NCBI GenBank assembly: GCA_903868145.1
Contig: CAIPTY010000048.1
Span: 1-32,079 of the forward strand
Direction: 5' to 3'
Origin: an uncultured Desulfuromonadales bacterium
Lineage (GTDB): Bacteria; Desulfobacterota; Desulfuromonadia; Geobacterales; Pseudopelobacteraceae
Length of the DNA stretch: 32,079 nucleotides
Below the pieces are notes generated by a model, which worked only from the letters and a program-made list of their open reading frames with translations, was not told the origin of the DNA and searched no databases. Below are positions 13,515-23,268 of the stretch, one piece after another (the stretch's first letter is position 1; each line of letters begins with the position of its first letter). The position numbers and the translations under genes were made by a program.

Positions 13515-14963
13515 ATGCAACGAACAAGATTACTCATTGTTGATGATGAAGCAGCAATCAGGGACGGATTGAAACGTATTCTCGAACGCGAATCGTTTGT
13601 TGTCGAAACCTGCTCCAGCGGTTTTCATGCCATCGAGATCATGCAGCAGCATACGTTCGATCTGATCATAACAGACCTGAAAATGCCGGGTATGAGCGGC
13701 ATCGAGGTTCTAAAAGGCGTCAGAACCCTGCAGCCCGGCATCCCGGTAATCCTTATTACCGGCTTTGCTTCGATTGACACGGCTGTGGAGGCCATGAAAA
13801 ACGGGGCGTCGGATTATATATCAAAGCCCTTCGCACCCGACATTCTGATGGAAAAGGTTAAAAACGCCCTTTCCCAGCGTCACAGCTCTTCCGATGAGGC
13901 AGATTTCAAAGAGGAAGTCAGCCAGCATCATGGATTTCATCAGTTTATTGGAGAGAGTGCCGAGATGCAGAAGGTGTATCACCGCATCGTGCAGGTGGCC
14001 GCCACCAACAGCACCGTGCTGATCACCGGGGAAAGCGGCACCGGCAAGGAACTGGCAGCCCGTGCAATCCATGACAACAGCCTCAGAAAAGATAGGCCTT
14101 TTGTGGCGGTGGATTGCTCCTCCCTGGCGGAAACACTGCTTGAGAGCGAATTATTCGGACATGTCAAAGGTTCTTTTACCGGTGCGGTACAGGCAAAAAC
14201 CGGGTTATTCAAGATTGCCGACGGTGGCACCCTCTTTCTGGATGAGGTTTCAAACATCACTCTCTCTACTCAGGCCAAACTCCTGCGCACCCTTCAGGAA
14301 CGCAAGATTACCCCCATAGGCGGCACGCAGCCGGTGCCCATAGATATCCACCTGGTCGCCGCAACAAACAGGAATCTCAAAACAATGTCGCACGAAGGAA
14401 CATTTCGGGAAGATCTGTTTTTTCGTCTGAATATAATTCCTATCGAACTCCCGCCTCTTCGTGATCGCAGGCAGGATATTCCGATCCTCATACGTCATTT
14501 TTTGAAAAAGTACACACGGGAGATTGGCAAGGAGATCCGTGGGATTGCACCAGATGTCATGTCCTTTCTGGAAAACTATTTATATCCGGGCAATGTACGT
14601 GAGCTGGAGAATATGATTGAACGGGCGGTAGTGCTGGCGGAAGGAGATTGTATCCGAAATGAGGATCTCGAACTCTGGGACAGCAATGACGAGCCAGCAT
14701 CAAACAAGATGATTGACCGCATTCCCATGAACGCAGAAGAGCTTAAAGAGATGAAACGCCATATTCGGGATCACGCCATGGAATCCCTGGAAAGCGTGTT
14801 TGTGCGCAACGCCCTTGAACGTAACGGCTGGAATGTTACCAGAGCGGCCGAAGAGACCGGTATATTGAGGCCGAATTTCCAGAACATGATGAAGAAACTG
14901 CGGATTTCGATAAAGGGAGAACGGGGATTCAAACCGGATCATTCCCCCGATCCGTCAGAATGA
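13515..14963 (+). CDS. NtrC-family sigma54-dependent response regulator
   Basis: This 482-residue protein has a receiver domain at 1-120 (D10-D11, phosphoacceptor D54, T82, K104), then a sigma54-interacting AAA+ ATPase. The ATPase shows Walker A GESGTGKE at 172-179, the sigma54-contact loop as GSFTGA at 219-224 (Ser in place of the commoner Ala) and Walker B GGTLFLDE at 237-244. The C-terminal Fis-type helix-turn-helix includes ERNGWNVTRAAEETGI. Phosphorylation would license activation of sigma54 promoters; no cognate kinase is adjacent. The stop overlaps the start of a small duplicated ORF (ATGA). It marks the last clearly chromosomal gene before the tRNA-associated island. Confidence 0.94.
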   Translation: MQRTRLLIVDDEAAIRDGLKRILERESFVVETCSSGFHAIEIMQQHTFDLIITDLKMPGMSGIEVLKGVRTLQPGIPVILITGFASIDTAVEAMKNGASDYISKPFAPDILMEKVKNALSQRHSSSDEADFKEEVSQHHGFHQFIGESAEMQKVYHRIVQVAATNSTVLITGESGTGKELAARAIHDNSLRKDRPFVAVDCSSLAETLLESELFGHVKGSFTGAVQAKTGLFKIADGGTLFLDEVSNITLSTQAKLLRTLQERKITPIGGTQPVPIDIHLVAATNRNLKTMSHEGTFREDLFFRLNIIPIELPPLRDRRQDIPILIRHFLKKYTREIGKEIRGIAPDVMSFLENYLYPGNVRELENMIERAVVLAEGDCIRNEDLELWDSNDEPASNKMIDRIPMNAEELKEMKRHIRDHAMESLESVFVRNALERNGWNVTRAAEETGILRPNFQNMMKKLRISIKGERGFKPDHSPDPSE

Positions 14964-15049
14964 AAACCGATGTTGAATTTATGAATAGAACAGGATATAC
15001 AGGTACGCAGTCCGCAGAAAACAAGAAAATTGGAAGAGCACTTAAATAG
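14960..15049 (+). CDS. 29-residue small ORF, duplicated beside the intact tRNA
   Basis: The ATG overlaps the stop of the sigma54 regulator. Its first 13 residues (MKTDVEFMNRTGY) closely match those of another small ORF at 21802 (MKTSVEIMNRIGY), with several silent or conservative base changes between them. Both sit upstream of a tRNA-Ser copy. Whether it is translated is unknown; the match may reflect duplicated DNA rather than a protein. Confidence 0.4.
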   Translation: MKTDVEFMNRTGYTGTQSAENKKIGRALK

Positions 15050-15065
15050 TAGAGTTCCCCAGCAT

Positions 15066-15105
15066 GGAGAGGTGTCCGAGTGGTCGATGGTGCCTGACTC
15101 GAAAT
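15066..15105 (+). pseudogene. 5' half of tRNA-Ser(CGA), left attachment-site copy
   Basis: These 40 bases are identical to 22033-22072 of the intact tRNA-Ser: acceptor strand, D arm and anticodon stem-loop up to one base past the loop. The sequence then diverges completely. The bases before it are also similar between copies (TAGAGTT..CCAGCA). Loss of homology at the anticodon stem-loop is typical of tyrosine-recombinase attachment cores, so I read this as attL of the segment ending at 22072. It cannot form a functional tRNA. Confidence 0.82.
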
Positions 15106-15153: not shown

Positions 15154-15187
15154 AATGCGTTAGCTAATACAGCTAGCGCATTTTTTT
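15154..15187 (+). terminator. Rho-independent terminator after the half-tRNA
   Basis: A 12-bp stem (15154-15165 with 15171-15182, one G-U pair) with loop AATAC is followed by an uninterrupted T7 run. It would end any transcript started at the promoter of the truncated tRNA copy. Confidence 0.88.
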
Positions 15188-15203: not shown

Positions 15204-15224
15204 ATGGTGCACTGATGGTGCACT
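15204..15224 (+). repeat. Direct repeat of ATGGTGCACT, left arm-type sites
   Basis: There are two copies of ATGGTGCACT, at 15204-15213 and 15215-15224, with an 11-base period. An inverted copy lies at 15325-15334. The same tandem pair occurs at 21902-21922 near the other end of the segment. Short repeats about 100 bases from each core on both sides fit arm-binding sites of a tyrosine integrase; that role is inference. Confidence 0.65.
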
Positions 15225-15351
15225 ACTCGGCGAATATTCTCGAATGGGTACAAAACATGGCGACAGATTGAGCATCCCTGTGAAGGCCCGATTTTAAAGC
15301 GATTACAGGCAATAAAAAATGAAAAGTGCACCATAATTGCACTATTTTACA

Positions 15352-15380
15352 TTGACCACATCATAACTATCTGTTATAAA
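15352..15380 (+). promoter_or_regulatory. Sigma70-type promoter for the GHKL-like gene
   Basis: TTGACC (15352-15357) and TATAAA (15375-15380) are separated by exactly 17 bases. Initiation near 15387 would leave only about 16 untranslated bases before ATG 15403, with no Shine-Dalgarno. An inverted arm-type repeat lies just upstream at 15325-15334, so a bound recombinase could affect it. Confidence 0.7.
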
Positions 15381-15402
15381 AGCATATATTTTAATTTGTC
15401 AT

Positions 15403-16443
15403 ATGATTGTACATCATTGTCGCGGGTTTTCGTGGTTATCTTCCGAGTGGCTTGACAATAAAGATTGGGAACCACTTTCAATCATAGATTCAGCACCTGG
15501 AGAGGGCCTTGATTCTCCTGGCACTCTAATTGAAGTTAAAAGTCTTTATCCAAGTGTTTCCAGACATTTTCATAGCGAATCATTTGTCAATGAACTGCAA
15601 ACAGCACTCGGTGAGCACTTTACAACATTCTTGCAAAAGGGCCTCAACATCGAGGTTAACAATACTTTGGTGAAACCTGTTCGGGTGGAAGTCTTGGTTT
15701 CGGATCAAGTCGACGGTCCAGCTCCATATATTTATCAAAAGGAGATTGATGGTGTTAACGTTTCAATTACCGTTGGGCTAAACACAGGAAGAAGTTTTGA
15801 TGATGAAGATGACGAAAGCGGTGACTTTGAGCGAAATAGATCTGCAACGATTGCTGGCTGGACGGTTTTTTGTAACGACAGAGCTGTAATATTTGGCGAT
15901 AAAGGTCGCTTGACGGGCTGGGGCGATGGAGTCCCAATGTACCACGGTCAGTTCTCTGTAATTACTGGTATTGTAGAATTTCGTTCCGCATCTGCTGATA
16001 AGTTACCAATAACTACGACTAAAAGGGCTTTAGACACTTCATCTGAGGTTTGGCTTGAAGCTCGGGTAAAGATGCGCGAAGGATTAAGAGTTTGGATTAA
16101 TCATACAAATACATGGAAAAATCATCCTCGCTCCGAGCAATCAAAATACTGGGAATCAGCACGGCCTTTATCCTTGGCCAAGGCCGTGGAGTCTGTCGTA
16201 TCGCGAGATGTTACCAATAAACAGGATGGGGGAATTGAGTATAATCCAACAAAGAAAAAGGTCCTTCCAGTACCAGATACAAAAAAGCCTTCTTCAAGGA
16301 AAATTGTATTTTCGAGACCTATCGAAGAGATAAGAACCGTTTCAAGTGCTCTGTTTGATAGAGACGATGAAGCCCCCGGCGTTGTCGGTGACAAATGTTT
16401 TTATATCGTTCTTGAAAGTGCGCAGCAAAGGAAGGTGGAATGA
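15403..16443 (+). CDS. GHKL-type ATPase-like protein, apparently lacking its ATP-binding domain
   Basis: This 346-residue protein reads like the C-terminal two-thirds of a large Hsp90/MutL-like (GHKL) ATPase of the kind found in defence loci. From GTLIEVKSLYPSVSRHF onward it resembles the post-ATPase part, including TIAGWTVFCNDRAVIF and PITTTKRALDTSS. The N, G1 and G2 ATP-binding boxes are absent, and a stop codon in the same frame lies upstream at 15364. Either it is N-terminally truncated at the island's left end, or it is a genuine ATPase-free variant, since a good promoter sits directly upstream. It has no ribosome site. The stop abuts the start of the next gene, so the two are coupled. 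Family assignment is from memory of sequence style and is moderate. Confidence 0.6.
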   Translation: MIVHHCRGFSWLSSEWLDNKDWEPLSIIDSAPGEGLDSPGTLIEVKSLYPSVSRHFHSESFVNELQTALGEHFTTFLQKGLNIEVNNTLVKPVRVEVLVSDQVDGPAPYIYQKEIDGVNVSITVGLNTGRSFDDEDDESGDFERNRSATIAGWTVFCNDRAVIFGDKGRLTGWGDGVPMYHGQFSVITGIVEFRSASADKLPITTTKRALDTSSEVWLEARVKMREGLRVWINHTNTWKNHPRSEQSKYWESARPLSLAKAVESVVSRDVTNKQDGGIEYNPTKKKVLPVPDTKKPSSRKIVFSRPIEEIRTVSSALFDRDDEAPGVVGDKCFYIVLESAQQRKVE

Positions 16444-17436
16444 ATGGGTGCCGCCTCGTCCGTTGCCTACAAAATTCGACCGAATAAAGCAGTCGATAGG
16501 GAATTGTTTCTTTCCCTTCTAAGCCGTCTTAGTGCACACCTCAAGGTTGAAAACTATAAATATATTGGCCTTGGTGGACCGTTATTAGAGGATTTTCGCC
16601 TGTTGCATGCAAGGTTAGGCATCCGGGATATGGACTGTATTGAGATAGAAGAAAATGTCCATAAAAGACAAAAATTCAACAAGCCAATTGAATCAATAGC
16701 CTGCATTCACTCATCCTTGGAGGATTACCTTGCGGGCAATGATTTTGAGAAACCAGTGGTATTGTGGCTTGATTACACTGATCCAAGGAGTATTCAAAAG
16801 CAGATAGAAACATTTTCGAATCAAGTTATTGAATTGCCGATTAGCAGCATTATTCGCATAACCCTGAATGCAAATCCATCAAGTTTGGGAAAACCTGATG
16901 CTAAAGACTTAGCGGTGAATCTTCCTGGGGTAATAACTTCTCCAAGCGGAAAACCTACTGAATTGGAATGGAGATTGGAGCGCTTCAAAGAGCGTTTGGC
17001 GGACTACTATCCTGCCGATTTAACGCCAGATGATATGATGCAAAGAAATTTTGGAAAAAGCCTATTGAAAGCATTGCGCCTTGCCGTCGAGAAGACGGTT
17101 CTTGATGCCCGCGACAGAAAAGCAGTTTGGGCTCTTGCTACGAACTATTCAGATGGGCAATCGATGGTGACAGCAACCCTGATTGTTGCAACTCCTGACG
17201 ACACTCAAATTGAAAGCATATTAAAAAATTGGGAATTTACTTCAATACCACAAACCCCATTGGTTCTTGATCTGCCTGCGCTGTCCACTTTGGAGCGTCT
17301 TACTATGGAATCATGCGAGAACCCAAGAGATAAACTTGGTTACGATCTCCCGAAATCAGATATGAATCAAGATCCATTTTACACATTTAAGCGGTTCTAC
17401 AGAGTATTTCCTCATTTTTCTCGAATTGATATTTGA
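16444..17436 (+). CDS. Rossmann-fold methyltransferase-like protein, partner of the GHKL-like protein
   Basis: This 330-residue protein begins on the base after the preceding stop codon. Residues about 38-52 (YKYIGLGGPLLEDF) look like a glycine-rich SAM-binding loop. CIEIEE follows about 25 residues later (acidic ribose-binding position), and VLWLDYTDP falls near the position of a motif-IV-like strand. This suggests a class I methyltransferase fold, though the catalytic motif is not a standard DNA methyltransferase NPPY/DPPY. I do not know a characterised homologue. Coupling to a GHKL-like gene and proximity to drmA suggest an anti-phage role, which is inference. Base composition is more AT-rich than in drmA, so the pair and drmA may have different origins. 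Confidence 0.65.
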   Translation: MGAASSVAYKIRPNKAVDRELFLSLLSRLSAHLKVENYKYIGLGGPLLEDFRLLHARLGIRDMDCIEIEENVHKRQKFNKPIESIACIHSSLEDYLAGNDFEKPVVLWLDYTDPRSIQKQIETFSNQVIELPISSIIRITLNANPSSLGKPDAKDLAVNLPGVITSPSGKPTELEWRLERFKERLADYYPADLTPDDMMQRNFGKSLLKALRLAVEKTVLDARDRKAVWALATNYSDGQSMVTATLIVATPDDTQIESILKNWEFTSIPQTPLVLDLPALSTLERLTMESCENPRDKLGYDLPKSDMNQDPFYTFKRFYRVFPHFSRIDI

Positions 17437-17479: not shown

Positions 17480-19522
17480 ATGAGCGACACCCAAGACCTC
17501 ACAATATTAAAGGGACCTCGGACTCCGAACGCATGGCTCGTCCAACTCGGTCAAAATGCGACCTTCAAAAAACACCTCGCCACTGTTACTGCTCCTCATT
17601 CGAGCCTCCCTGTAGTCGAGGAAGGCGATGGTTTTCTAATTGTCGACCAATCCAAGGGCGGGATAGTATCATTCGCTCGACTCTACCGCACGCGTTCTAC
17701 CTTAGTTGACACCACCTTCTATTTTGATTCCGTTGTGCCGCTCACTCCACCAGTTGATCCCGCGTCTTGTGGTGTATCGGTAATGGTAACCGGCGAAGTC
17801 CTGTCGAGAATGGACTGGGTGGTATTCACATCTGCATTGAAGCAATCTGCCGGGTTTGATTTCGCAGATATGCCGATCATAAAAACGAATTCTCCACTTG
17901 AACAGGCGTATCTCCGTGAAATGCTCCAGTTGGCGACTATGGACGATCTACTTGGCCCAGCTTGTGGTCCGGAAGAAGAGATCGTAGGCATGAGCGTCCG
18001 TGATCGCTATCTTGTCGGCAAGCTTGCGCCCCGCACACGGGGAGGTTTCGACGCTGTGGAAGGATTGAAAGGAGTCTCTGCCGAAGAAGAAACCACCGGT
18101 AATGGAGTAGCCCCCAAAGATCTAAAGCCATACGAAGAGACCGGGGAAGGTAAGAATAAGGCAGCACGTCGACGACTTCCCGGAGAAGAGTTCTCTGCAG
18201 CCGAGGGGCACTGTGATCCAGACGATGACGATAGCCTGGAGGTCGACGCTTCAAAAAACCAGTCTTTCGTTCCGTCCTCGATTGGTCTAACAGTCTGTGT
18301 CGACGGGGCTATTGAAGAGATTGAGCTTGATGTGACGTGGGGACGATACCAACGTACTGCCAGCGAAGAGCAGACCAGTGAAGACGGAAAAGCCATGCGG
18401 GCCTGGAAACGTATTCCCTCTGGCGGTAAGATAGTATTACCACTCAAGGACGGAAGGATCGGAGCGAGAAACCCCGATTCGGAATGTCCGAGTGTTGTAA
18501 TACAGGGTGCAGTCCGTCCGCCGTTGCCCTCTGGCGACAGATTGGTCACGATTTTTCTCGTTAACGACCAGGAGCAGCCGCCGCAGAACCAAGACGAAGC
18601 ATGGTTGTTTCAACCCGAAATCGCTTTGAGGCATCCAGAGGGAAAGGCTGTGTTCCGTCGTCGACCAGTAATGGAGAATGATGGAATAGATCAAGAACGA
18701 GAATCTCTTGAAATGATCTATCGGGGACGGGTCGAATTTGCTGTAGGCCACAGCGTGTCTGTGTGTGCAGAACATTCGGTTGAAGATCCTGAGAAGGCCA
18801 TTACTATTCGAACATCTGTGCTTCCGCAATATGAAGTGGCAGTCACCGAAACCCCTGGTCTGGATCCCGCAGATCGCCCCGCCATGAGGAGAATGGTTGA
18901 CGAGGGATTCTTGGATATGCAGACGCTGGCCGAACTCGACCAGCATGAACTGATATCTGCGTTGTCTATCATCACAGACGACTACGAGTCGTGGATATCC
19001 GAACAACGAAATAGAGTCGGAAAAGATGTAATCGGTTACGACGACGCAGCAAAACTGTCGATGGATCATTGTAACGAGATACTTATCCGTCTTCGTGAGG
19101 GGATCAATACCCTCAATACAGACAACAAAGCATTGAAGGCGTTTCGCTTCGCCAATGCGGCCATGGCTACACAGCGTATCCGTAGTATCTATGCGCTCGA
19201 AAGACGTCGTAAATCTGAAGCAGACCTCACTGCTATCAATATTCCAAAGAATCGCTCTTGGCGACCATTTCAGCTCGCATTCATTCTGCTGTCGATTCCA
19301 GCATTGGCAGATCCAACTCACAAGGACCGCACGAAACCGATCGAATCCTACGCGGATCTCTTATGGTTCCCCACTGGTGGTGGTAAGACAGAAGCTTATC
19401 TGGGTGTGGCAGCGTTCACTATGGCTATCCGTCGGATACAGGGGAGCCTGGGTGGCATGGATGGAAGTAGGGGACTCTCGGTCATTATGCGGTACTGCCT
19501 GAGCTGCATAGACGAAACCTGA
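17480..19522 (+). pseudogene. drmA: DISARM helicase DrmA, truncated after Walker A
   Basis: This 680-residue frame matches the N-terminal half of DrmA, the large helicase of the DISARM anti-phage system (full length about 1200-1300 residues). It has the acidic N-terminal region, then FRFANAAMATQR, RSWRPFQLAFIL and the Walker A block LLWFPTGGGKTEAYLG near residue 626. Homology stops at SVIMRY; the last eight residues (CLSCIDET) are foreign and the remaining helicase motifs are gone. drmB, drmC and the methylase gene that should follow are absent, so DISARM here is not functional as a whole. The start ATG 17480 has AGGGG upstream. The breakpoint near 19495 joins drmA to a run of small accessory genes. 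Confidence 0.8.
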
Positions 19523-21009: not shown

Positions 21010-21029
21010 ATTTAAAAGGAGATATGACC

Positions 21030-21533
21030 ATGACCATTACAGCACTATTCGGAACAAAGGAAATTGCACACAAACCCAAAGCAATCAAATTCAAACAGAT
21101 CAAGGCCGTGTACGAGACTCTGACCGTAAGAGAAGAAATTACCAACTACCTGAAGCCGGGCACCAGATACACAGCACCACAGCAGGTGTACGAGACGTTC
21201 CGCTTCCTGATGCACGAGACGAAAGAAATGTTCATCTGCCTGCATCTCGATGGTAAAAATAAGATTCAATGCATGGATATTGTTAGTATCGGTTCGCTCA
21301 ACCAGAGCATCGTTCACCCAAGAGAGGTATTTAAAACTGCACTATTATCCAATGCGGCAGCGATACTACTCATCCACCAACATCCAACTGGTGATCCATC
21401 AGCTTCATCTGAAGACATATCTATCACTCGAAGATTGAAAGAAGCAGGTGAAATATTGGGGATCAAGGTACTCGACCATATAATTATCGGAGATGGCGAA
21501 TACCTCAGTTTTGTAGAACGGGGGCTGTTTTAG
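21030..21533 (+). CDS. radC: RadC-family JAMM protein (island copy)
   Basis: This 167-residue protein of the RadC/JAB family has the metalloprotease-like core near the C-terminus: HQHPTGDPSASSED (H-x-H...S-x-x-D). The usual HNHPTGD is HQHPTGD here. IHLDGKN-like text and SIGSLNQSIVHPREVFKTAL are characteristic of the mobile-element subgroup, which lacks the N-terminal helix-hairpin-helix of housekeeping RadC. I prefer the second ATG (21030), 8 bases from AAAAGGAG; the one at 21024 is too close. It is paralogous to the radC at 22618-23118 on the other side of the tRNA. RadC was named for DNA repair, but its biochemical role is unsettled; on islands it accompanies anti-restriction and defence genes. 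Confidence 0.88.
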   Translation: MTITALFGTKEIAHKPKAIKFKQIKAVYETLTVREEITNYLKPGTRYTAPQQVYETFRFLMHETKEMFICLHLDGKNKIQCMDIVSIGSLNQSIVHPREVFKTALLSNAAAILLIHQHPTGDPSASSEDISITRRLKEAGEILGIKVLDHIIIGDGEYLSFVERGLF

Positions 21534-21801: not shown

Positions 21802-21849
21802 ATGAAAACCTCTGTTGAAATCATGAACAGAATAGGTTATAAAGACTGA
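21802..21849 (+). CDS. 15-residue small ORF, partner of the one at 14960
   Basis: It encodes MKTSVEIMNRIGYKD, matching the start of the 29-residue frame at 14960 over 13 residues. Both copies lie upstream of a tRNA-Ser 5' half, and similarity resumes at TAGAGTT..CCAGCA immediately before the tRNA. It is probably a shortened duplicate; translation is uncertain. Confidence 0.3.
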   Translation: MKTSVEIMNRIGYKD

Positions 21850-21901: not shown

Positions 21902-21922
21902 ATGGTGCACTCATGGTGCACT
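21902..21922 (+). repeat. Direct repeat of ATGGTGCACT, right arm-type sites
   Basis: Copies at 21902-21911 and 21913-21922 have an 11-base period, in the same orientation as the pair at 15204-15224. A partial copy AAAGTGCA follows. They lie about 110 bases before the right core copy and are absent from the corresponding position of the left duplicate. Confidence 0.65.
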
Positions 21923-22032
21923 AAAGTGCAAAAACCAGCGACAACGTAACGAAGATAGCAACAAATTGCAGCAAGTCTACAGAAAGCTAACATATTGGAA
22001 TAAAACAGCTAAATGTAGAGTTTAACCAGCAC

Positions 22033-22120
22033 GGAGAGGTGTCCGAGTGGTCGATGGTGCCTGACTCGAAATCAGGTGTTCTGAAAGGAACCTAGGGTTC
22101 GAATCCCTACCTCTCCGCCA
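22033..22120 (+). tRNA. tRNA-Ser(CGA)
   Basis: This is a complete 88-base type II tRNA including encoded CCA. The acceptor stem is GGAGAGG (22033-22039) with CCTCTCC (22110-22116). The anticodon stem is CCTGA/TCAGG around loop CTCGAAA, with anticodon CGA at 22067-22069 reading UCG. A long variable arm (GTTC..GAAC) and T loop TTCGAAT are present. The first 40 bases duplicate those at 15066-15105. It should be functional; its promoter and 5' half may derive from the inserted element. Confidence 0.97.
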
Positions 22121-22617: not shown

Positions 22618-23118
22618 CTAAAGCAGACCCTGGCATACGAACGATAGGTAGCTGTCACCGATAATAATATGATCGAGCAACTTAACGCCGATGATCTCTC
22701 CTGTTTCCTTCAACCGCCTCGTTATTTCAATATCTTCTCTGCTGGGTGTCGTATCTCCTGTGGGGTGGTTGTGTACCAGAATGAGGGCCGCCGCCGAACT
22801 TAACAGTGCCGTTTTGAATACTTCTCTTGGGTGAACAACACTTTGATTCAGGGAACCGACTGAAACTTCGTCAACGCAACAGATACGGTTTTTGCCGTCC
22901 AAATGAATGGCAAAGAAATATTCCTTCGTTTCGCGCCGCAAAAAGCTGAACGTATCGAAAACTTGCTCTGGACTGGTATATCTGGTGAATGGCTGTAAAT
23001 ATTGATTTACCTCCTCTTTGATGGTCAATGTTTCATATACCGCCCTGATTTGTTTGAGCCTGATCGTTCTGGGCTTCGCCGGAACCTGCTCTTGGCCGAA
23101 AAATGTTTCAATTGTCAC
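22618..23118 (-). CDS. radC: RadC-family JAMM protein (second copy)
   Basis: This 166-residue mobile-element RadC has the canonical HNHPTGDTTPSREDIE motif. It aligns end to end with the copy at 21030: IKFKQIKAVYETLT versus IRLKQIRAVYETLT, and SIGSLNQSIVHPREVF versus SVGSLNQSVVHPREVF. I start it at GTG 23118, preceded by AGAGGAGA, because that start gives MTIETFFG matching MTITALFG of the other copy; the TTG at 23136 overlaps the ribosome site. It is followed by the plasmid-related gene. The two radC copies face each other across the tRNA and are clearly diverged, so they were probably acquired separately. Confidence 0.88.
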   Translation of the reverse strand: MTIETFFGQEQVPAKPRTIRLKQIRAVYETLTIKEEVNQYLQPFTRYTSPEQVFDTFSFLRRETKEYFFAIHLDGKNRICCVDEVSVGSLNQSVVHPREVFKTALLSSAAALILVHNHPTGDTTPSREDIEITRRLKETGEIIGVKLLDHIIIGDSYLSFVCQGLL

Positions 23119-23268
23119 TATGCTCTCCTCTCGCAATTTTATAATTAGTTAGGGGCAGTCAGCAGTTGATGTAGACATGTTGCAGGATGCGGTATGGCAG
23201 CAAACTTCTGGTAGATACTTTTTTGTTTTGCCAACGATTTTATCGAGTCAGTAACTTTTCCCATGGTT

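What the first reader, a model, noticed from the sequence alone, without database searches (positions are those of the whole stretch)
15352..17436. Coupled GHKL-like and methyltransferase-like gene pair inside a tRNA island
Two abutting genes, one resembling the post-ATPase part of GHKL ATPases and one a Rossmann methyltransferase-like protein without a standard catalytic motif, sit under their own sigma70 promoter directly ahead of a DISARM helicase. I know of no characterised defence system with exactly this pair. It may be an undescribed two-gene anti-phage module, or an unrecognised accessory of DISARM. The apparent absence of ATP-binding boxes is either truncation or a real ATPase-free variant.
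Basis: partly seen in the sequence, partly recalled or inferred. Interest (0 to 1): 0.72.

Follow-up and report, generated by a model that had tools for sequence, protein, structure and literature searches.

The report
Broken remnant of MORC-methyltransferase defence pair
The two genes are the leftover middle of a larger bacterial anti-virus gene cluster; this copy is broken, but its intact relatives form a widespread gene pair, with no name that I could find, that usually sits beside a DNA-methylating enzyme and sometimes inside the DISARM defence system.

Summary
The two abutting genes are real, but this copy is a remnant. 15403-16443 has lost the ATP-binding boxes kept by the other 52 of 53 aligned rows (homology starts at 15437, residue 137 of about 471). 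The following drmA stops halfway. The genome shows no second drmA and no C5 DNA methyltransferase gene. The 'ATPase-free variant' is rejected.

The pair as a family is real. The first protein is a MORC-like GHKL ATPase; the second is Pfam PF20553, a class I methyltransferase fold. Starting from the GHKL, the genes are adjacent in 62 of 65 genome loci and 68 of 80 viral-contig loci; starting from PF20553, in 10 of 10 testable genomes. Their divergence is tightly coupled (r = 0.90), that of the neighbouring Dcm less so (0.45).

In 27 of the 65 loci the pair is embedded in class 1 DISARM. The other 35 adjacent loci lack DrmA; 33 have a Dcm, 17 of these no Vsr. Best reading: a methylation-guarded, restriction-like module with an exchangeable methyltransferase, one branch of which docked into DISARM. 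No PADLOC (2023) or NCBIfam model covers the pair, and ten library searches found no name. Function is untested.

The parts
15059..15105 (+). left attachment-like site: copy of the 5' half (to the anticodon loop) of the tRNA-Ser(CGA) gene
   Evidence: direct repeat D1, 47 nt, 98% identical to 22026-22072; no tRNA called here by ARAGORN; role inferred
15206..15224 (+). GGTGCACTNATGGTGCACT double site near the left end of the island (possible integrase/excisionase arm site)
   Evidence: exact match; 3 matches in the window with up to 3 mismatches against 0.03 expected; role inferred
15325..15343 (-). second, inverted GGTGCAC-type site (2 mismatches)
   Evidence: role inferred
15352..15379 (+). 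promoter-like TTGAC-N18-TATAA upstream of the truncated GHKL gene
   Evidence: pattern match, 0.04 expected per window; not reported by the stricter scan; function inferred
15403..16443 (+). 5'-truncated paraMORC-type GHKL ATPase gene: the end of the ATPase fold, the S5/transducer-like domain (with TTTKR) and the C-terminus remain; the first 11 residues are not homologous
   Evidence: residues 12-343 align to 137-469 of Microvirga WP_173949777, 61%; DNA homology to L033 begins at 15437
16444..17436 (+). whole PF20553 (Methyltransf_35) gene, class I SAM-methyltransferase fold
   Evidence: 268.8 bits against cut-off 27, profile 3-308 of 309; AlphaFold2 model pLDDT 89.3; structural matches up to Z 14.5
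17480..19522 (+). 3'-truncated drmA (DISARM helicase); homology ends about 19495-19510
   Evidence: PADLOC DrmA 776.8 bits over profile 416-1076 of 1750; 28 of 28 homologues align up to its residue 677 of 680; rest of DrmA not found in the window
21904..21922 (+). GGTGCACTNATGGTGCACT double site near the right end of the island
   Evidence: exact match; role inferred
22033..22120 (+). intact tRNA-Ser(CGA); right attachment-like site
   Evidence: ARAGORN; repeat D1

Best explanation
In the window: a decayed fragment of a class 1 DISARM locus, left in an island at tRNA-Ser(CGA). A deletion or rearrangement removed what lies upstream of codon 137 of the GHKL gene (in intact relatives dcm, vsr, drmD and drmMI stand there) and the second half of drmA onward (drmB and drmC follow in relatives). 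Only the PF20553 gene is whole, so this copy is almost certainly inactive as a system (my confidence in this part: 0.93). In intact relatives, inferred: the GHKL protein is a paraMORC, an ATP-gated clamp that dimerises around DNA. PF20553 is its regular partner, a SAM-binding Rossmann protein. A neighbouring DNA methyltransferase (usually C5, sometimes N4/N6) marks the host's own DNA. The clamp-partner complex acts on DNA lacking the mark, either by cutting it through an unrecognised active site or by locking it up. The unit works alone with its methyltransferase, and one branch has become an optional module of class 1 DISARM. Shown: adjacency, co-divergence, the methyltransferase association, predicted folds, presence inside DISARM loci, truncation. 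Inferred: anti-phage function, self/non-self discrimination by methylation, DNA clamping, the role of SAM.
For: Truncation. No C5 methyltransferase in the own genome (0 matches, 97% complete), no second DrmA match, DrmMI-like matches only weak (at most 48.7 bits). Adjacency 62 of 65, 68 of 80 and 10 of 10. A Dcm hit is in 33 of 35 adjacent genome loci without DrmA, 24 of 27 with DrmA and 67 of 68 adjacent viral loci. Of the six without one at E 1e-5, L010, L021, L053 and L077 begin at a contig end on the upstream side, L035 begins at the 10-kb flank limit, and L062 has an N6_N4 methyltransferase 1.7 kb downstream. The methyltransferase next to the pair is N6_N4 type in L208-L211. GHKL-PF20553 distance correlation 0.90 (partial 0.88) against 0.45 for GHKL-Dcm, 73 dereplicated loci of 121. 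Fold: full-length GHKL (L033) to MORC3 Z 21.7, 296 aligned, rmsd 3.5; PF20553 a class I methyltransferase fold. DISARM-embedded: DrmA in 27 of 65 loci, DrmB in 27 of these, DrmMI and DrmC in 26, DrmD in 25; tree.
Against: No experiment of any kind. No nuclease is identified in the pair, so 'restriction' is by analogy; and I did not scan every neighbour of the stand-alone loci for nuclease domains: an HNH-like gene (by eye) sits near the pair in 3 of 39 loci and a MutH-like gene near L062. GHKLs without PF20553 also sit with C5 methyltransferases (11 of 12 non-adjacent viral loci), so that association belongs to the wider GHKL group. PF20553 may be a true methyltransferase with an unknown substrate, modifying rather than attacking. 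In six divergent loci (L075, L156-L160) the 1.5-kb flanks showed no C5 methyltransferase; wider flanks of the same six (L207-L212) showed an N6_N4 one in four, a C5 one about 1.2 kb upstream in one, and none that I identified in L207. The coincidence of a broken GHKL and no C5 methyltransferase in this genome may be one deletion, not a guard logic.
Confidence: 0.65

Rival explanations
1. The pair is a DISARM subunit set: in class 1 DISARM it adjusts which DNA the DrmAB complex attacks, and stand-alone copies are derived leftovers.
For: 27 of 65 loci have it in the same operon slot, with DrmMI upstream in 26 and DrmA downstream in 27, four of these after a gap of 1.2-4.3 kb; six stand-alone rows inside the 26-row DISARM clade look like escapes or losses.
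Against: All rows outside that clade are stand-alone (root by midpoint only); the only genome with both DrmA and PF20553 in the Pseudomonadota sample is the chosen centre; in L165 and L166 drmMI abuts drmA directly; none of 80 viral-contig loci shows DrmA within the 6-kb flanks.
Confidence: 0.15
2. PF20553 is an active methyltransferase effector or modifier: the GHKL clamp presents unmarked nucleic acid (DNA or RNA) and PF20553 methylates it, or methylates a protein, to stop the invader.
For: Class I fold; the best-scoring structures are RNA, protein and small-molecule methyltransferases (RsmD-like, METTL16, Trm1, PsiM). Conserved G42/G44 after strand 1, E67 at the end of strand 2 and invariant D110 at the end of strand 4 sit where SAM-site residues usually do.
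Against: No (D/N)PP(Y/F/W) motif; other invariant residues (R12, K15, R19, R75, D237, E284) suggest a different active or binding site; no sequence relative in the PDB by profile search.
Confidence: 0.2
3. Not defence: an epigenetic regulatory module of mobile elements, in which methyltransferase and clamp control the element's own expression or partition.
For: Common in IMG/VR contigs (83 relatives, 80 loci kept in one scan) and in filamentous phage PfAC20.
Against: Presence inside loci of a proven defence system (DISARM) and the exchange of methyltransferase type fit restriction-modification better; defence genes are also common on prophages (PMC11878078, passages, lists several in Pf phages).
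Confidence: 0.1
4. The window copy is a real, selected ATPase-free variant.
For: Both ORFs are open and a promoter-like site lies upstream.
Against: The start of homology is abrupt, the other 52 of 53 aligned rows keep the ATPase boxes, drmA next door is cut too, and the genome lacks a C5 methyltransferase gene.
Confidence: 0.03

Closest known systems
Class 1 DISARM (drmD, drmMI, drmA, drmB, drmC)
   Same: 27 of 65 loci carry the pair in this operon, DrmMI upstream in 26 and DrmA downstream, with a C5 methyltransferase in 24 and Vsr in 20 (Microvirga plasmid); the window keeps the GHKL end, PF20553 and half of drmA.
   Different: The pair is optional: in DISARM loci L165 and L166 drmMI abuts drmA. 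PADLOC-DB 2.0.0 has no model for either protein. 35 of the 62 adjacent genome loci have no DrmA.
Prokaryotic MORC/paraMORC ATPases of restriction-modification neighbourhoods (Iyer 2008, PMC2292703; parts 1-2 of 4 read, plus passages)
   Same: GHKL plus S5 domain, association with C5 methyltransferases and Vsr; that paper also notes a minority of neighbourhoods with methylases or restriction enzymes but no helicase. The fold of the full-length relative matches MORC3/MORC2.
   Different: What I read mentions no PF20553-like partner and no DISARM. Which paraMORC family (1-5) this is was not tested; I did not see the paper's figures.
HEF_HK / Response_reg_2 pair with C5 methyltransferase (Bellieny-Rabelo 2021, PMC8011034; passages read)
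   Same: A GHKL gene plus a second gene next to a C5 methyltransferase and often Vsr; the paper reports 91.6% linkage in 644 regions.
   Different: The partner there is a receiver-like domain (PF19192) and the GHKL carries PF19191; neither Pfam model was among the hits here.
BbrUII/HgiDII family restriction enzymes (NCBIfam NF050001)
   Same: A GHKL-related family annotated as restriction enzymes; the GHKL of PfAC20 matches it weakly (29.6 bits, E 2.6e-7).
   Different: Far below the cut-off of 550 bits; the model has 659 positions, while the pair's GHKLs in A4 are about 430-490 aa and have a separate partner gene.
VcSduA (Shedu with N-terminal GHKL, PMC12137116; passages read)
   Same: A GHKL ATPase used in a phage-defence protein.
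   Different: There the GHKL is fused to a PD-(D/E)xK nuclease; here no nuclease domain was recognised in the pair and the partner is PF20553.

Membership tests
Class 1 DISARM (window copy) | complete DrmA helicase | tested here: not met
   Frame ends at 680 aa, 28 of 28 homologues align to its residue 677; Microvirga DrmA is 1323 aa and its second half is not found in the window; no second DrmA match in the genome.
Class 1 DISARM (window copy) | DrmB, DrmC, DrmD and DrmMI in the locus | tested here: not met
   tblastn of the Microvirga proteins against the window gave nothing below E 0.05; genome-wide DrmMI matches at most 48.7 bits. DrmB, DrmC and DrmD were not sought genome-wide.
Class 1 DISARM (related loci) | drmD, drmMI, drmA, drmB and drmC together | tested here: met
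   Of 27 loci with DrmA: DrmB 27, DrmMI 26, DrmC 26, DrmD 25 (own profiles seeded from Microvirga); PADLOC DrmMI 1805.5, DrmB 268.0 and DrmC 344.2 bits in L002.
MORC/paraMORC GHKL ATPase (window copy) | N, G1 and G2 ATP-binding boxes | tested here: not met
   Absent; homology starts after them; present in the other 52 of 53 rows of A4.
MORC/paraMORC GHKL ATPase (related loci) | GHKL domain plus C-terminal S5-type domain | tested here: met
   HATPase_c_3 43.5 bits in L033, cut-off 25; model of L033 aligns to MORC3 ATPase-CW Z 21.7 over residues 12-364. Hsp90 chains follow closely (Z about 20).
MORC/paraMORC GHKL ATPase (related loci) | membership of one of paraMORC families 1-5 | not tested
   No alignment of those families was available.
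PF20553 Methyltransf_35 | score over the Pfam gathering cut-off across the domain | tested here: met
   268.8 bits, cut-off 27, profile 3-308 of 309.
Class I SAM-dependent methyltransferases | Rossmann-like fold of the class | tested here: met
   Model pLDDT 89.3; Z 14.5, 152 aligned, rmsd 2.4 to 2ift_B and Z 13.7, 217 aligned, rmsd 4.0 to Trm1 3axs.
Class I SAM-dependent methyltransferases | SAM binding and methyl transfer | not testable with these tools
   Only residue conservation at the expected positions.
Restriction-modification system (related loci) | cognate DNA methyltransferase | tested here: met
   Dcm hit in 33 of 35 loci without DrmA, 24 of 27 with DrmA and 67 of 68 adjacent viral loci; N6_N4 methyltransferase next to the pair in L208-L211 and near it in L062; none identified in L207. 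For the window genome: no C5 methyltransferase.
Restriction-modification system (related loci) | restriction activity on unmodified DNA | not testable with these tools
   No nuclease domain recognised in the pair; needs experiment.
BbrUII/HgiDII family restriction enzyme (NF050001) | score over the curated cut-off | tested here: not met
   29.6 bits against 550 for the PfAC20 GHKL; no hit for the window or L033.
HEF_HK / Response_reg_2 pair | PF19191 and PF19192 domains | tested here: not met
   Not among the Pfam hits at the E-value limits used.

The most novel reading that the evidence does not exclude
The intact trio (exchangeable DNA methyltransferase, MORC-like clamp, PF20553) is a restriction-modification system without a nuclease: the MORC-type ATPase topologically entraps and compacts unmethylated incoming DNA, with PF20553 as SAM-dependent sensor or modifier, making it a bacterial counterpart of MORC-mediated silencing, acting on unmarked DNA and portable enough to plug into DISARM.
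Probability: 0.2. Interest if true: 0.88.

Novelty: new variant of a known kind. Interest (0 to 1): 0.6.

Why it matters
Eukaryotic MORC ATPases silence genomic parasites by an incompletely understood DNA-compacting mechanism, and their bacterial relatives were placed beside restriction genes in 2008 (PMC2292703). This family offers a minimal testable case: a short MORC-like protein, one strongly co-diverging partner and a swappable methyltransferase, with a Vsr absent in about half of the stand-alone genome loci and no nuclease recognised in the pair. It may also give a partner to C5 methyltransferases now taken for orphans: the authors of the PfAC20 phage paper list its methyltransferase as an incomplete restriction-modification system (PMC11878078, passages), although the pair sits directly upstream. 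And it marks an optional component of a subset of class 1 DISARM that PADLOC-DB 2.0.0 does not model.

Tried and rejected
ATPase-free variant: rejected. MAFFT lays window residues 2-11 over the G1 region with a few shared letters; as nothing upstream of them is homologous I treat that as chance. Simple 'DISARM accessory' reading: too narrow. Looking for a further conserved gene in the 38 genome loci without DrmA plus PfAC20 (39 loci; ORFs of 90 aa or more within 7 kb, BLASTP 1e-5): no cluster spans more than 4 loci. A cluster of 3 (L038, L049, L063) looks HNH-like by eye; the domains of most neighbours were not scanned. L062 has a MutH-like gene and an N6_N4 methyltransferase nearby. Looking for PF20553 in kin of the host: 1 of 57, the genome itself. 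Profile search of the PDB with both alignments: no hits. The fold lists show no nuclease for PF20553, which excludes nothing; the BFVD library was not searched. The first genome-contig scan, with the truncated protein alone, found no relatives; the second, with a three-row alignment, gave 65 loci. The E. coli collection gave no match, plasmids 2 records (the second, L004, was not used), phages 1. A PF20553 scan of viral contigs gave 10 loci; 9 are contigs already held and the tenth (L189) begins at its contig's first base, so it was not counted.

Counts: left out: L001 and L005 (the window itself); L163 (cut by its contig start) from the PF20553-centred count; the centre genomes G057, G058 and G000, leaving 11 genomes, 10 testable. 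In one search the adjacency flags of L071-L073 and L075 are wrong because of their orientation; one search corrects this. L060, counted as not adjacent, is a GHKL fused to the end of a PF20553 protein. L026 has a Dcm hit only below 100 bits. In one search, 50 of 398 genomes match the DrmA model, 6 over its cut-off; most others are matches under 25 bits, so 'about 14' true DrmA genomes is my reading of the scores. One search kept 80 of 83 relatives.

Literature (held library only); 51 and 104 sought PfAC20 and HgiDII/BbrUII rather than a name for the pair. One search (Methyltransf_35, PF20553, DUF6094) returned no paper. PMC5867850 and the other papers were seen only in the listing. The original DISARM paper (Ofir 2018) was not seen. 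Aparicio-Maldonado 2021 was seen only as a reference in PMC9142583.

Full report
WHAT IS IN THE WINDOW. Two + strand ORFs abut exactly: 15403-16443 (346 aa) and 16444-17436 (330 aa), followed by a DrmA frame from 17480 to 19522. PADLOC and NCBIfam identify the last as DrmA (776.8 and 462.6 bits, the latter below its cut-off of 950 for the whole protein). Pfam identifies the second as PF20553 Methyltransf_35 (268.8 bits, cut-off 27) and gives nothing for the first. ARAGORN finds one tRNA, Ser(CGA), at 22033-22120. A 47-nt copy of its 5' half ends just after the anticodon at 15105 (98% identity), a usual place for a tyrosine-recombinase crossover (established knowledge, not tested). Three GGTGCAC-type double sites sit near the two ends, against 0.03 expected. 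No integrase was among the 19 window ORFs scanned with Pfam.

THE COPY IS BROKEN. An intact annotated relative is on a Microvirga plasmid: C5 methyltransferase, Vsr, drmD, MmeI-type drmMI, ATP-binding protein (471 aa), O-methyltransferase (331 aa), drmA (1323 aa), a DUF1998 (DrmB-type) protein, drmC. Residues 12-343 of the window protein match residues 137-469 of the 471-aa protein at 61%; the first 11 residues lie outside the match. The closest relative I found, a Methylococcaceae MAG (L033; GHKL 77.6%, PF20553 protein 72.3%), matches the window's DNA from 15437 to 17433 only. In alignment A4 (53 rows) the N-box, G1 and G2 residues checked are in the other 52 rows, with one exchange in L033, and missing in the window (two G1 columns, C and G, are matched there by the stretched-out first residues of the window row), while TTTKR of the S5 part is in all 53. 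Among the 65 genome loci, L065 also lacks the boxes because its contig starts inside the gene, and the longer GHKLs of L064 and L068 do not fit my G2 pattern. 28 of 28 homologues align with the drmA frame up to its residue 677 of 680, about half of Microvirga DrmA, whose second half gives no significant match in the window; DrmB, DrmC, DrmD and DrmMI give nothing below E 0.05 there. The genome (97% complete) has no C5 methyltransferase match, no other DrmA match and only weak DrmMI matches. PF20553 occurs in 1 of 57 genomes of its kin, itself. The 'ATPase-free variant' is therefore a truncated gene in a remnant of an acquired DISARM locus.

THE FAMILY. I scanned one genome for each of 84,980 species with an alignment of three GHKL proteins and got 65 loci. 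In 62 of 65 a PF20553 homologue is adjacent on the same strand. The exceptions are L060, a GHKL fused to the end of a PF20553 protein, and L064 and L068, longer GHKLs. Of the 62, 27 hold DrmA in the same locus (DrmB in 27, DrmMI in 26, DrmC in 26, DrmD in 25, Dcm in 24, Vsr in 20; in four of them 1.2-4.3 kb separate PF20553 and drmA) and 35 do not. Of those 35, 33 have a C5 methyltransferase hit, 16 with and 17 without a Vsr hit. The two others are L053, whose contig starts at the GHKL gene, and L062, which has an N6_N4 methyltransferase and a MutH-like gene nearby. A scan of viral contigs gave 80 loci (of 83 relatives); 68 have the adjacent pair, 67 of these with a C5 methyltransferase and none with DrmA within the flanks. 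The 12 others hold GHKLs without an adjacent PF20553 gene, 11 of them with a C5 methyltransferase. Searching the other way, PF20553 is found in 5 of 398 genomes (phylum of G057), 5 of 395 (own phylum) and 5 of 337 (class of G058). Leaving out the three centres and one genome counted twice, 11 remain; 10 can be tested and all 10 have a GHKL next to it. In wider flanks of six of these, the methyltransferase next to the pair is N6_N4 type in L208, L209, L210 and L211, a C5 type stands about 1.2 kb upstream in L212, and in L207 I identified none among the genes scanned, which include a SNF2-type helicase and a NOV_C protein.

ONE UNIT, EXCHANGEABLE METHYLTRANSFERASE. For 121 loci with all three genes, 73 after dereplication at 85% GHKL identity, pairwise distances of GHKL and PF20553 proteins correlate at 0.90 (partial 0.88 given Dcm), GHKL and Dcm at 0.45 (partial 0.21), PF20553 and Dcm at 0.41 (partial 0.01). 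Spearman values are 0.72, 0.27 and 0.14. In 64 loci without DrmA the Pearson values are 0.83, 0.43 and 0.37. Identity distances saturate, so these figures are comparative only; the GHKL-Dcm value also exceeds all 999 permutations. A tree of 53 GHKLs places all 19 DISARM rows in one 100/100 clade of 26 rows, with six stand-alone rows and the window; the label changes at least four times, and all rows outside the clade are stand-alone (midpoint root, several long branches). One docking into DISARM with later losses is the simplest reading; several dockings are not excluded. The window groups with L033 (100/100), which shows no drmA within 9 kb downstream. In the Pseudomonadota sample the only genome with both a DrmA and a PF20553 match is the centre, and in L165 and L166 drmMI abuts drmA without the pair.

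WHAT THE PROTEINS LOOK LIKE. AlphaFold2 of the full-length L033 GHKL (pLDDT 84.5, pTM 0.79) matches MORC3 (Z 21.7, 296 aligned, rmsd 3.5), MORC4 (20.6), Hsp90 (20.0) and MORC2 (19.7); rows within one Z unit are tied, so MORC proteins lead only slightly over Hsp90. Foldseek itself ranked Hsp90 first. Neither alignment finds a PDB relative by sequence profile. The window's PF20553 protein (pLDDT 89.3) is a class I methyltransferase fold, with 50 listed entries at Z 12.6-14.5, among them RsmD-like proteins, METTL16, PsiM and Trm1. Eleven residues are invariant in 52 homologues: Y9, R12, K15, R19, Y40, D50, R75, W108, D110, D237 and E284. G42/G44, E67 and D110 lie at the ends of strands 1, 2 and 4, where SAM-site residues usually sit (inference). 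The usual (D/N)PP(Y/F/W) signature is replaced by W-x-D-Y.

HOW IT MOST LIKELY WORKS. By analogy with MORC ATPases and MutL (established knowledge), the ATPase would dimerise and close around DNA. The methyltransferase would mark self, and PF20553 would supply recognition, SAM sensing or chemistry. No further gene cluster spans more than 4 of 39 loci without DrmA, so if this is restriction then PF20553 or the GHKL C-terminus hides a nuclease, or DNA is disabled without being cut, or an unscanned neighbour cuts. That this genome has both a broken GHKL and no C5 methyltransferase fits a guard logic, but a single deletion explains it equally well.

WHAT IS KNOWN. paraMORCs next to C5 methyltransferases and Vsr were described in 2008, a minority of MORC neighbourhoods without a helicase (PMC2292703, parts 1-2 of 4 and passages). 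A different GHKL pair with receiver-like partners was described in 2021 (PMC8011034, passages). PMC9142583 (passages) lists DISARM's parts and 'additional auxiliary genes' without naming such a pair. NCBIfam names BbrUII/HgiDII restriction enzymes, which the PfAC20 GHKL matches weakly (29.6 bits) and a second GHKL in L022 better (306.3 of the 550 needed). No PADLOC or NCBIfam model covers the pair, and ten paper searches found no name for it. Preprints, most subscription journals and later defence databases were not searched.

VERDICT. As a feature of this window: a broken remnant. As a pointer: a widely spread, co-diverging MORC-PF20553 pair for which I found no name, with an exchangeable DNA methyltransferase, and an optional part of class 1 DISARM; a new variant of the known MORC-in-restriction theme.

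Noticed in passing
L022:19152-20831: A second GHKL gene directly after drmC in a DISARM locus matches the BbrUII/HgiDII restriction-enzyme family over its first 371 positions (306.3 bits, cut-off 550).
   Followed up: partly
L060:9944-11467: A GHKL reading frame is fused to the last part (profile 252-308 of 309) of a PF20553 protein, either a natural fusion or another decayed copy.
   Followed up: partly
L140-L145, L147, L149, L151-L153, L064, L068: Longer GHKLs (about 560-630 aa) with C5 methyltransferases but no PF20553 gene: apparently a separate version. Eight sampled (L064, L066:998-2689, L068, L140-L142, L145, L151) reached no NCBIfam cut-off.
   Followed up: partly
L003 (Pseudomonas phage PfAC20) 280-3711: The filamentous phage carries GHKL, PF20553 and a C5 methyltransferase in a row; its authors list only the methyltransferase, as an incomplete system (PMC11878078, passages).
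   Followed up: yes
L038:12639-13370, L049:13211-13978, L063:13560-13997: A small protein with CxxC and DHVPS motifs, HNH-like by eye, sits near the pair in three loci.
   Followed up: no
window 21024-21533 and 22618-23136: Two RadC-domain genes, one inside the island and one just outside it on the other strand.
   Followed up: no
window 14960-15002 and 21802-21844: A second direct repeat (43 nt, 81%) upstream of both attachment-like sites; the right end may carry a diverged copy of the chromosomal sequence or a second element.
   Followed up: no
window 15154-15182: Terminator-like hairpin (12 pairs, T tail) between the tRNA fragment and the truncated GHKL gene.
   Followed up: no
L207, L211: Divergent GHKL-PF20553 pairs near SNF2-type helicases (the one in L211 with a PLD domain), an N6_N4 methyltransferase and a DUF1156 protein (L211) and a NOV_C protein (L207): larger defence-like operons that may have taken up the pair.
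   Followed up: partly
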